Source of the DNA: Hydrogenophaga sp.
Lineage (GTDB): Bacteria; Pseudomonadota; Gammaproteobacteria; Burkholderiales; Burkholderiaceae_C
NCBI GenBank assembly: GCA_016790705.1
Contig: JAEUOT010000030.1
Coordinates: forward strand, 62,001-126,000
Length of the DNA: 64,000 nucleotides
Direction of reading: 5' to 3'
Shown here: one piece after another, positions 16,743-19,732 of the stretch
Layout of the letters: each line of letters opens with the position of its first letter
Position numbering within the stretch: position 1 is the first letter of the stretch
Program-made: the position numbers and the translations under genes
The notes under the pieces: generated by a model
What the model was told of the DNA's origin: nothing
Databases searched by the model: none
Seen by the model: only the letters and a program-made list of their open reading frames with translations

Positions 16743-16769
16743 AAAAAAAAGCGGGACAAAGTCCCGCTT
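16743..16769 (-). terminator. Terminator of Asr-like gene 1
   Basis: Perfect 9-bp stem AAGCGGGAC / GTCCCGCTT with loop AAA, beside eight A (T run on minus strand). It is 22 nt past the stop at 16792. Confidence 0.9.
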
Positions 16770-16791: not shown

Positions 16792-17130
16792 TCAGGACTT
16801 CTTCTCTTCAGCCTTCTTTTCTTCAGCCTTGGGGGCGGCGGCCTTCTTGGCCTTCTTCACCTTCTTGGCGGGCTTCTTTTCTTCAGCCTTGGGAGCGTCG
16901 GCCTTCTTTTCTTCGGCCTTGGGGGCAGCGGCGTCAGCCTTCTTTTCTTCGGCCTTGGCGGGGGCAGCGGCGGCGGGAGCAGCAGCCTTCTTCTCTTCAG
17001 CCTTGGCAGGAGCAGCGGCAGCAGCAGGAGCGGCAGCAGCGGCGGCGGGAGCAGCAGCGGGAGCGGGGGTGGCGGCCACAGCAGCGGCAGCGGACACGGA
17101 GGCGATCAGGGCAATCAGCAGTTTGTTCAT
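16792..17130 (-). CDS. Asr-like Ala/Lys-rich exported small protein 1
   Basis: A 112-residue low-complexity exported protein. The signal peptide MNKLLIALIASVSAAAAVAA is followed by a Pro/Ala block and then at least six copies of the unit KAEEKKA, with a basic core KPAKKVKKAKKAAAPKAEEKK. Composition and architecture resemble the acid-shock protein Asr of enterobacteria, which is cleaved and cationic in the periplasm; homology cannot be shown for such simple sequence. It lies directly downstream of the sensor kinase gene. A TTAAG direct-repeat box at 17207-17223 and a possible -10 (17180-17185) precede it. A paralogue of 78 residues lies at 19385-19621. Confidence 0.85.
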   Translation of the reverse strand: MNKLLIALIASVSAAAAVAATPAPAAAPAAAAAAPAAAAAPAKAEEKKAAAPAAAAPAKAEEKKADAAAPKAEEKKADAPKAEEKKPAKKVKKAKKAAAPKAEEKKAEEKKS

Positions 17131-17206
17131 GATGTCGGTATGAAGAATGTCAGCCTGGGAGGCTTCCCGAGGCGGGCAGATTATTGCCGCCGTCCTGGAG
17201 GACAGG

Positions 17207-17223
17207 CTTAAGGTTTTCTTATG
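17207..17223 (-). promoter_or_regulatory. Response-regulator box upstream of Asr-like gene 1
   Basis: Minus strand CATAAG-AAAAC-CTTAAG, hexamers 11 bp apart in direct orientation, the PmrA/QseB-type layout. It overlaps the stop codon of the sensor kinase. AATAAT (17180-17185) follows after 21 bp as a candidate -10. Confidence 0.6.
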
Positions 17224-18646
17224 GCGTGTCGGGTGGTACTGCACCCACGTCCGCAGACGCGGCAGATGGCGCTCGCAGGGGCAGCAGGATGCGTACCGTG
17301 AGCCCGCCACCGGGGGTGTCGTCCAGCGCCATGCGGCCGCCATGCAGTTCGGCGGTTTCTCGTGCGATCGACAGCCCAAGGCCGCTGCCTTTGACCTCGG
17401 TCTGGTTCAGTCTGGTGAACCGTTGCATGGCCTTCTCGCGCTGCTCCAGCGCAATGCCGGGGCCGTTGTCGCTGACCTCGAGAACCGCCAGATCGTCCTG
17501 GTGGCGAACGCAGAGATCGATGCGCGCGCCGGGAGGTGAGTAGCGCAGGGCGTTGTCGATCAGGTTGTCCAGCATGGCGCGCAGCGCGAATCGGTCGCCC
17601 GACACCACCAGGGGTTCCGTGCCGACCAGACCCAGATCGGTGTTCCGCGAGTCGGCCTGGGCCGAGAATGCCGCCACCGCTGTGCGCACCAGCGCATCGA
17701 GAGCCACCGGTTCACTGGTCGGTGCCCGCTGGTCCGGCTCCAGCCGCGCCAGTTGGAGAAGCTGGGCGGCCAGGTGGATCGCCCGTTCAATGCCCGCGTC
17801 GAGGTCGTCCAGCGCGGCCTTGCGCTCGGCGTCGTTGGCGCGCCGGGCGAGCTGAGCCTGCAGCTTGATGGCGGCCAGCGGGGTGTTGAGCTCGTGGGCC
17901 GCATCGGCAAGAAACTGGCGCTGTCCGGCCAGCAGGTGATCCAGCCGCCCCAGTAACTGGTTGAGGGTGCTGGCCAGCGGGGTCACTTCGGTGGGCATGT
18001 CGTCCATCGACAGCGCGTGCAGCTGGGCGACCTCCCGCTGTCCGAGTTCGTCTCGCAGCCTGTCCAGCGGTTCGAGGGCCCGTGATACCGCCTCGTGGAT
18101 CAGCGCGGTCAGCAGCACCACCAGCAGGCCGATCGGAAGCAGCAGCCAGGTGATCAGGGTCGACAGGGCCTTGTTGCGGTCGTGCCGCGTTACTGCCACC
18201 TGCGCGATGCGCGTCTCCCGGGGCAGTGTGAACACCCGCCAGGTGTGGTCCTGCCAGACCACGGAGTGCATGCCAGGCGACTGCAGCGGAGGGCCTTCGT
18301 CCAGGGCCGAGGAGTAGATCAGCTTGCCCTGCTTGCTCCAGATCTGGGTGACGAACTGCCCCTCGTCGGGCTCATCGTCCGCAGGTTCATCGATGGTGTC
18401 CGGGTCCCCGGGCGTGGCATCCGCTGCGGGTGCGCCGCCGGGCGCCGCCGTGTGCCGGCCGGGCGGAGCCGGCACCGGCGTCTCGTCGTGGCGCAAGACG
18501 GTGTGGGCGACCTGTTCGAGTCCGTAGTCCTGCACTTCGTTGAACCCGTCTGCGGCCAGCCGGTAGGTGAGCATGCTGACCACCAGGGCCGTCACCAGCA
18601 GGGCAGAAATCTGCCAGATCAGCAGGCGTGAACGGATCGAACTCAA
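17219..18646 (-). CDS. Sensor histidine kinase, QseC/PmrB type
   Basis: Membrane sensor kinase of 475 residues. Membrane helices lie at about 8-28 and 161-184, enclosing a periplasmic part with a Pro/Asp/Glu-rich insert (60-97). A HAMP-like linker follows. The H-box is FLADAAHELNTPLAAIK with His251; Asn replaces the commoner Arg after Glu-Leu. The N-box is DNLIDNALRYSPPG, G1 VSDNGPGI and G2 GSGLGLSIA. The start is TTG in a 4-nt TTGA overlap with the response regulator stop. The acidic periplasmic loop suggests cation or pH sensing, but that is inference. Confidence 0.92.
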   Translation of the reverse strand: MSSIRSRLLIWQISALLVTALVVSMLTYRLAADGFNEVQDYGLEQVAHTVLRHDETPVPAPPGRHTAAPGGAPAADATPGDPDTIDEPADDEPDEGQFVTQIWSKQGKLIYSSALDEGPPLQSPGMHSVVWQDHTWRVFTLPRETRIAQVAVTRHDRNKALSTLITWLLLPIGLLVVLLTALIHEAVSRALEPLDRLRDELGQREVAQLHALSMDDMPTEVTPLASTLNQLLGRLDHLLAGQRQFLADAAHELNTPLAAIKLQAQLARRANDAERKAALDDLDAGIERAIHLAAQLLQLARLEPDQRAPTSEPVALDALVRTAVAAFSAQADSRNTDLGLVGTEPLVVSGDRFALRAMLDNLIDNALRYSPPGARIDLCVRHQDDLAVLEVSDNGPGIALEQREKAMQRFTRLNQTEVKGSGLGLSIARETAELHGGRMALDDTPGGGLTVRILLPLRAPSAASADVGAVPPDTP

Positions 18647-19305
18647 GCGACTTCCACCAGCTTGTAGCCCACGCCCCGCACGTTGCGGATCCAGGGCTCG
18701 CCCAGCTTGCGCCGCAGATGGTGGAGGTGGACCTCGATGGCGTTGCTGGCGACTTCTTCTCCCCAGCCGTAGAGCTTGTGCTCCAGTTGCTCGACGGAGA
18801 GCACGGCACCCGGCTTTTGCATGAGTGCCAGCAGCAGGTCGAATTCACGCTGGGACAGCGTCAGTGTTTTTTCGCCCAGCCTGGCAACACGCTCGATGGG
18901 TCGCACCTCCAGCCGACCCAGTTGCATGACCGGATTGGCCTGACCGGGTTGGCGTCGGGCCAGCGCGTGGATGCGGGCCACCAGCTCATCGAGGTCAAAT
19001 GGCTTGGTCAGGTAATCGTCGGCGCCCTGGTTGAGCCCGGTCACGCGGTCCCGCACCGTGTCACGCGCCGTGACCATCAGGACCGGCGTGGACTGTCGCT
19101 GCTGGCGCATGCGTTGGAGCACCTGCAGGCCGTCGATCTCGGGCAGTCCGATGTCCAGCAGCACAACGTCGTAGACCTGCGATTGCAGGGTGGTGAGCGC
19201 GTGCTGCCCGTTGCGCACCCAGTCCACGGTGAATCCGGCCTGGACCAGGGCCTTTTCCATGCTTGTGCCCAGCATGGCATCGTCTTCGGCAAGCAGCAGC
19301 TTCAT
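18643..19305 (-). CDS. Response regulator, OmpR family (QseB/PmrA type)
   Basis: A 220-residue OmpR/PhoB-type regulator. The receiver has the acidic pair EDD at 7-9, phospho-acceptor Asp51 in VVLLDIGLPEIDG, Thr in VLMVTARD and Lys in YLTKPFDLDEL. The winged-helix output domain ends RNVRGVGYKLVEVA. It is coupled to the sensor kinase by a 4-nt overlap. Likely targets in the window are the two Asr-like genes, whose upstream regions carry the direct-repeat boxes expected for this family. Confidence 0.95.
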   Translation of the reverse strand: MKLLLAEDDAMLGTSMEKALVQAGFTVDWVRNGQHALTTLQSQVYDVVLLDIGLPEIDGLQVLQRMRQQRQSTPVLMVTARDTVRDRVTGLNQGADDYLTKPFDLDELVARIHALARRQPGQANPVMQLGRLEVRPIERVARLGEKTLTLSQREFDLLLALMQKPGAVLSVEQLEHKLYGWGEEVASNAIEVHLHHLRRKLGEPWIRNVRGVGYKLVEVA

Positions 19306-19339
19306 CGCGGATCGGTGTGAAACAACGGTGATTGAAACA

Positions 19340-19365
19340 AAAAAGGCGGGACTGATCCCGCCTTC
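19340..19365 (-). terminator. Terminator of Asr-like gene 2
   Basis: Perfect 9-bp stem AAGGCGGGA / TCCCGCCTT with loop CTGA, beside six A (T run on minus strand). It separates Asr-like gene 2 from the response regulator gene. Confidence 0.9.
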
Positions 19366-19384
19366 TGTGAAAAGAAAGGTCCGA

Positions 19385-19621
19385 TCAGGACTTTTTCTCT
19401 TCGGCCTTGGGGGCTGCTGCCTTCTTGGCCTTCTTGACTTTCTTCACCTTCTTGGCGGGCGCTGCGGCCTTCTTGGGGGCTTCGGCGGGCTTGGCAGCGG
19501 CGTCCGCAGCAGGCGCGGCAGCGGCGGCGGGTGCCGGAGCGGCAGCGGCCGGGGCCGGCGTGGCTGCCTGGGCGGCGAAGGCGGTGGCGGAGACGATCAG
19601 TGCGGCGAGGAGCTTGTTCAT
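19385..19621 (-). CDS. Asr-like Ala/Lys-rich exported small protein 2
   Basis: A 78-residue paralogue of the protein at 16792-17130. It has the same leader type (MNKLLAALIVSATAFAAQAA), a Pro/Ala block, and the basic end KKVKKVKKAKKAAAPKAEEKKS. It lacks the repeated KAEEKKA units of the longer paralogue. It is monocistronic, with its own terminator. Four TAAG hexamers in helical phase lie 74 nt upstream. High expression and periplasmic location are inferred from the signal peptide and the strong terminator. Confidence 0.85.
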   Translation of the reverse strand: MNKLLAALIVSATAFAAQAATPAPAAAAPAPAAAAAPAADAAAKPAEAPKKAAAPAKKVKKVKKAKKAAAPKAEEKKS

Positions 19622-19694
19622 GATGGGAGTCCTTTCGGGGTTGGTCCAGGTGAAGCGGTTTCCCCTGCGACGCGCCCATTGTTTTGCACGCTCA

Positions 19695-19732
19695 CTTAGT
19701 CGCTGCTTAATGTCTCTTACCGCTTTCTTAAG
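19695..19732 (-). promoter_or_regulatory. Array of four response-regulator half-sites upstream of Asr-like gene 2
   Basis: Minus strand hexamers CTTAAG (19727-19732), GGTAAG (19716-19721), ATTAAG (19706-19711) and ACTAAG (19695-19700), spaced 11, 10 and 11 bp. This in-phase direct-repeat layout is typical for OmpR/PhoB-family dimers. The nearest half-site is 73 nt from the gene start. Confidence 0.65.

What the first reader, a model, noticed from the sequence alone, without database searches (positions are those of the whole stretch)
16792..19732. Two Asr-like basic proteins bracket a two-component system and share its predicted binding boxes
Seen directly: two paralogous exported Ala/Lys-rich proteins lie on either side of an OmpR-family regulator/sensor pair. 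The only TTAAG direct repeats I noticed here lie upstream of these two genes: CATAAG-AAAAC-CTTAAG at 17207-17223, and four hexamers spaced 11, 10 and 11 bp at 19695-19732. Known: PmrA/QseB-type regulators bind hexamer direct repeats about 11 bp apart, and enterobacterial Asr is under two-component control. Inference: this is a self-contained module in which the system induces cationic periplasmic proteins, perhaps against acid or metal/cationic stress.
Basis: partly seen in the sequence, partly recalled or inferred. Interest (0 to 1): 0.7.

Follow-up and report, generated by a model that had tools for sequence, protein, structure and literature searches.

The report
Stress regulator paired with cationic proteins
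In a Hydrogenophaga-like bacterium, a PmrA/BqsR-like sensor-regulator pair sits beside genes for small, positively charged, probably exported proteins whose promoters carry the DNA boxes such regulators recognise; the same arrangement recurs in some related bacteria, so it looks like a real but untested envelope-stress module.

Summary
Two exported-looking Ala/Lys-rich proteins (A1, 19385-19621; A2, 16792-17130, minus strand) flank a QseB/PmrA-like regulator and its kinase. TTAAG repeats lie upstream of both: 4 matches in the window, 0.02 expected. In the whole genome, 4 of 7 hits with at most one mismatch are these two promoters.

With one filter on 103 regulator loci, blind to the box, 27 of 29 distinct testable small-gene promoters carry at least 8 of 10 box bases. 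In 26 of these 27 a -10-like hexamer ends 16-17 nt after the box (read by eye). A2 is the exception, so its control is less sure than A1's.

Against a general rule: in 29 of 36 Hydrogenophaga loci with this regulator no small gene was detected, and 12 of 12 similar proteins found by profile in other genera have no regulator or kinase match within about 1.5 kb. A paralogous regulator beside a DegP-type gene has the same box.

"Asr-like" is compositional only: no Asr match was listed for either window protein. Signal and function are inferred. New variant of the PmrA/BqsR kind.

The parts
19385..19621 (-). A1: 78-aa exported-looking Ala/Lys-rich protein, mature part +10, 3% bulky hydrophobic residues
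19695..19732 (-). Four TAAG-type hexamers spaced 11, 10, 11: predicted regulator site of A1; proximal pair ends 73 nt before the ATG
19678..19683 (-). -10-like AACAAT of A1, ending 17 nt after the proximal box
19341..19366 (-). Terminator-like stem-loop and T-run between A1 and the regulator
18643..19305 (-). OmpR-family response regulator, QseB/PmrA-like
17219..18646 (-). Sensor histidine kinase, QseC/PmrB-like, acidic periplasmic domain (21 Asp/Glu, 10 Lys/Arg)
17207..17223 (-). CATAAG-N5-CTTAAG: predicted site of A2, overlapping the kinase stop codon; the -10-like AAT ends 24 or 27 nt away instead of 16-17
16792..17130 (-). A2: 112-aa exported-looking Ala/Lys-rich paralogue of A1, mature part +9
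16749..16769 (-). Terminator-like stem-loop and T-run after A2

Best explanation
A PmrA/BqsR-type two-component system with dedicated local targets. The kinase senses an envelope insult through its acidic periplasmic domain (inferred; probably a cation, metal or low pH). The phosphorylated regulator binds head to tail on TTAAG-N6-TTAAG (inferred from motif and family), over the -35 region of promoters with a fixed -10-like hexamer, and switches on the small genes. A1 and A2 are each followed by a terminator-like element; read-through past the A1 one would raise the regulator and kinase as well (inferred). The products are polycationic, probably disordered periplasmic proteins that shield envelope anions or hold damaged proteins, as is reported for Asr of E. 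coli (inferred by analogy). My likelihoods: A1 controlled by a regulator of this type about 0.8, A2 about 0.55, the protective role about 0.4.
For: One box-blind filter over 103 regulator loci (some contigs twice) gave 31 candidate genes; without 1 cut by a contig end and 1 duplicate, 27 of 29 have at least 8 of 10 box bases within 160 nt upstream. For the 22 tested with shuffles: 21 observed, 1.04 expected; at least 9 bases: 15 observed, 0.083 expected; upstream of RhlE 0 of 28, EEP 0 of 18, HK 0 of 81. -10-like hexamer at 16-17 nt in 26 of 27 (by eye, hexamers AAT-ending, TACAGT, TAAACT and TAAGAT accepted after seeing them; for L066:-902 and L215 the best rather than the most proximal box). 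Exact TTAAGN6YTAAGT in the own genome: A1 and the DegP-type gene only; in G005 its two small genes only; in G007 one small gene only. Regulator: best PDB match BasR/PmrA, E 2.5e-54, SNAIEVHLHHLRRKLG against TNTLEVHIHNLREKIG. P. aeruginosa BqsR uses TTAAG(N)6TTAAG, with a four-pentamer promoter in which pentamers 3 and 4 are critical and 4 overlaps -35 (PMC4682146: passages and section 7).
Against: No expression or binding data. No small gene detected in 29 of 36 Hydrogenophaga loci with this regulator (one of them, L062, has only 124 nt upstream on its contig). 12 of 12 similar small proteins in other genera have no RR or HK match in the stretch fetched; 1 of the 12 reaches 8 of 10, 11 nt from its ATG. 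Two candidates lack a box: L065:+2405 and L107:-1160 (L107's is a doubtful gene). A2's -10-like site is displaced. The reversed-pattern control reaches 8 of 10 in 4 of 22 promoters and 9 in 1. The exact pattern over 13 genomes gives 14 sites against 8 for the reversed control, and in the own genome 2 against 2, so position and not number carries the argument; four small-gene genomes (G001, G074, G081, G085) have no exact site. The regulator falls below NCBIfam's QseB and PmrA cut-offs. Kinases of relatives without small genes are acidic too (net -2 to -18 in 12, against -2 to -15 in 17 with). No kinase match was found beside the regulator in L221. A strict box-plus-ATG pattern matched 1 of 399 family genomes, the own one, among 5 Hydrogenophaga in that sample.
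Confidence: 0.6

Rival explanations
1. The boxes are real sites but are read mainly by a paralogous QseB/PmrA-like regulator, such as the one beside the DegP-type gene; neighbourhood does not mean control.
For: Own genome has at least two more regulators at 51% identity; the one at C69 sits by a DegP-type gene with ATTAAGCCCGGTCTAAG. Pandoraea L100 has a box before a gene that looks like the same protease, by eye.
Against: In 66 Hydrogenophaga genomes, all 11 small-protein hits under E 1e-5 lie at this regulator locus (the profile was built from sequences of this kind of locus; of 5 weaker hits, 1 is at the locus and 4 are elsewhere).
Confidence: 0.2
2. The small proteins are not stress effectors but feedback ligands of the kinase: a secreted polycation that docks on its acidic sensor domain.
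For: Local linkage, acidic sensor; peptides selected from random sequence can activate PmrB (PMC7790251, abstract and section list only).
Against: Those peptides act in the transmembrane domain (same abstract); kinases are acidic also where no small gene was detected; solitary relatives of the small proteins exist.
Confidence: 0.12
3. The small proteins are low-complexity by-products of GC-rich DNA with no common function.
For: Composition-driven similarity; BLASTP of A1 and A2 aligns only the signal peptide; the type recurs as solitary genes.
Against: Signal peptide, start, box and -10-like site keep their order across distant loci.
Confidence: 0.08

Closest known systems
BqsRS of Pseudomonas aeruginosa (also called CarRS, recalled)
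   Same: TTAAG(N)6TTAAG repeats, a promoter with four pentamers, the most downstream pentamer at -35, link to cationic stress (PMC4682146, passages and section 7)
   Different: There the signal is Fe(II) and the strongest target is PA14_04180; no small Ala/Lys-rich protein appears in the passages I read. The RExxE motif (recalled) is not seen in this kinase's periplasmic part (by eye).
PmrAB/BasRS of enterobacteria
   Same: Closest solved regulator; quoted consensus (C/T)TTAA(G/T)-N5-(C/T)TTAA(G/T) (PMC10729948, one passage)
   Different: Below the NCBIfam PmrA cut-off (227.2 against 330 bits); no EptA/B N-domain match in the own genome, which is 85% complete.
Asr of E. coli
   Same: Small acid-induced periplasmic protein, reported as an intrinsically disordered chaperone (PMC10746267, passages); its basic composition and two-component control are recalled
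   Different: No Asr match listed for the window proteins; the window proteins have no His and are Ala-dominated.
AgrRS and PrsQ1/PrsQ2 of Cupriavidus metallidurans
   Same: Two-component regulator linked to predicted small periplasmic proteins needed for a metal-resistant phenotype (PMC7380067, passages)
   Different: AgrR box is an inverted repeat of ATTACA (6-4-6); PrsQ is CopQ-like.

Membership tests
PmrA/QseB/BqsR subgroup of OmpR regulators | Receiver plus winged-helix effector domain | tested here: met
   PF00072 and PF00486 above cut-off
PmrA/QseB/BqsR subgroup of OmpR regulators | Curated equivalog cut-off of QseB or PmrA | tested here: not met
   230.7 against 345 and 227.2 against 330 bits: kin, not filed as QseB or PmrA itself
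PmrA/QseB/BqsR subgroup of OmpR regulators | Direct repeat TTAAG-N6-TTAAG at presumed target promoters | tested here: met
   binding itself not testable here
BqsRS | RExxE motif in the sensor (recalled) | tested here: not met
   Kinase periplasmic alignment read by eye
Asr acid shock protein | Match to NCBIfam NF033636 or a Pfam Asr model | tested here: not met
   Asr not among the matches listed for A1 or A2 up to E 10 (the program drops most matches above 0.1); 7 of 29 small proteins match weakly, best E 0.00052
Asr acid shock protein | Acid induction and chaperone activity | not testable with these tools
   needs experiments

The most novel reading that the evidence does not exclude
A PmrA/BqsR-type system that, instead of decorating lipid A with cations, exports a genetically encoded polycation (a disordered Ala/Lys protein) which neutralises envelope anions and may at the same time feed back on the kinase's acidic sensor.
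Probability: 0.15. Interest if true: 0.75.

Novelty: new variant of a known kind. Interest (0 to 1): 0.5.

Why it matters
It gives a testable regulator, site and target for a class of small exported-looking Ala/Lys-rich proteins for which I found no convincing family (best match of 29 in NCBIfam E 0.00052, of 8 in Pfam E 0.0016, both under their cut-offs). It also suggests how a cation-responsive type of system may work without EptA-type lipid A modification, though only the own, 85% complete genome was checked for that.

Tried and rejected
Asr membership: rejected for the window proteins. Acidic sensor as a mark of small-gene carriers: rejected, the ranges overlap (the 12 relatives without the gene were a choice of mine). 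Exclusive linkage of the small protein to the regulator: holds among strong hits inside Hydrogenophaga, fails in the family. Strict box-plus-start pattern over the family: 1 of 399, the own genome. Sigma-70 consensus in the region: none found, which fits activator dependence but is weak. Regulator tree (97 rows): the small-gene label (17 rows) needs 10 changes against a shuffled mean of 16.0, at least 6 forced; L098 was mislabelled there as lacking the gene (it duplicates L216), and six of the eight loci were not in it. Paper searches for a precedent showed none on this arrangement among the rows listed; several listings were capped at 8-15 of up to 602 papers, in an open-licence library only.

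Rows dropped before counts: L217 (contig edge), L098 (duplicate of L216) and L107:-1160 (it passed the filter, and I left it out; one search puts it back, as a miss). In one search I picked Ala/Lys-rich rows by eye; applies one numeric filter and returns the same genes plus L107. Of the 80 loci, I examined 41 for small genes (14, 21, 6 new). Several loci are the same contigs as my G-handle loci, so the 103 loci are not all distinct.

Full report
What is there. The window lies in a Hydrogenophaga-like genome: 36 of 67 same-genus genomes, the own one included, hold the regulator at E 1e-80 or better, and of the six best relatives (66-72% identity) five are named Hydrogenophaga. On the minus strand RhlE, A1, regulator, kinase, A2 and a nuclease follow each other. 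A1 and A2 look exported and are strongly basic. Each is followed by a terminator-like element (6 such elements in the region against 3.1 in shuffles, so single hits are weak; these two are the ones with long T-runs right after the gene). Their 3' ends are duplicated at the DNA level, whereas BLASTP aligns only the signal peptides.

Chance. At most one mismatch to TTAAGN6TTAAG gives 4 matches in 64 kb, expected 0.02. In the 3.75 Mb genome there are 7 such hits, and 4 of them are these promoters. With up to two mismatches the pattern is common and the reversed control is commoner (104 and 108 against 291 and 269), so only the strict form is informative. Of the other three hits, one begins 67 nt upstream of a DegP-type gene beside a paralogous regulator, and two adjoin other genes. 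The exact form TTAAGN6YTAAGT occurs twice in the own genome, and so does its reversed control; over 13 genomes it is 14 against 8. What counts is where the sites lie.

Relatives. A small exported-looking Ala/Lys-rich gene near the regulator was found in 7 of 36 Hydrogenophaga loci, in 8 of the 15 further loci's order sample, and in 8 of 8 loci that are named Rhodoferax or Polaromonas, or in one case an uncultured beta proteobacterium (L140). One numeric filter, blind to the box, over all 103 loci gives 31 candidates; one is cut by a contig end and one is a duplicate; of the remaining 29, 27 have at least 8 of 10 box bases, the misses being L065:+2405 and L107:-1160. For the 22, shuffles predict 1.04 at 8 or more and 0.083 at 9 or more, against 21 and 15 observed; the reversed control gives 4 and 1. 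The sequences are related to each other, so these are not independent trials. The best box ends 66-106 nt before the ATG.

Promoter layout. By eye, a -10-like hexamer ends 16-17 nt after the box in 26 of 27; the exception is A2 of the window (24 or 27 nt). The hexamer forms were accepted after seeing them, so this count is descriptive. The eight promoters carry three overlapping boxes each, like the four-pentamer BqsR promoter. In three Hydrogenophaga loci without a small gene (L077, L197, L198) a box lies about 150 nt before the regulator itself, which suggests autoregulation.

Results against. In most Hydrogenophaga loci with the regulator no small gene was detected. A profile of 29 small proteins, run over 200 family genomes, hit 14 genomes; 12 are outside Hydrogenophaga, and in 12 of these 12 the gene has no regulator or kinase match in the fetched stretch, and 1 of 12 has an 8 of 10 box, 11 nt from the ATG. 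So the protein type is wider than the module. In some genomes lacking small genes the exact box lies before a 2OG-Fe(II) oxygenase (G015, G026, G034), before a gene that looks DegP-like (G026) or just upstream of another regulator (G028); two sites, L255 and L262, had no clear target.

Mechanism. The regulator's best solved match is PmrA/BasR, and the box resembles those quoted for PmrA and BqsR; QseB's quoted consensus differs. That this regulator binds here, that the kinase senses cations or acid, and that the proteins protect the envelope are inferences. Asr is described as a disordered periplasmic chaperone, the nearest functional model; membership is not met. PrsQ proteins and AgrR are a precedent for small periplasmic proteins under a two-component regulator.

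Verdict. The anatomy is real and recurs in relatives; control of A1 is likely, control of A2 plausible, function open.

Noticed in passing
L230:3161-7558 (own genome, C69): A paralogous QseB-like regulator pair is followed by a DegP-type protease (PF13365 and PDZ) whose promoter carries ATTAAGCCCGGTCTAAG; Pandoraea L100 looks alike by eye.
   Followed up: partly
L251:586-1440, L256:522-1370, L263 near 1501: In Hydrogenophaga genomes where no small gene was detected, the box lies upstream of a 2OG-Fe(II) oxygenase (PF13640 in L251 and L256).
   Followed up: partly
L265-L268, L270-L277: Solitary exported-looking Ala/Lys-rich genes without a neighbouring regulator match occur in other genera of the family; two lie near an RhlE homologue (L268, L276).
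   Followed up: partly
small proteins of L065 (-951), L066 (-902), L068 and L194: These four share a pair of cysteines in the form CDxKxDKxC towards the C-terminus.
   Followed up: no
L108, L115, L117, L121, L122: In Lysobacter-type loci a box with one mismatch precedes a small exported protein that looks PepSY-like (by eye, not searched).
   Followed up: no
L221: The small gene and a 10 of 10 box are present beside the regulator, but no match to the kinase was found.
   Followed up: no
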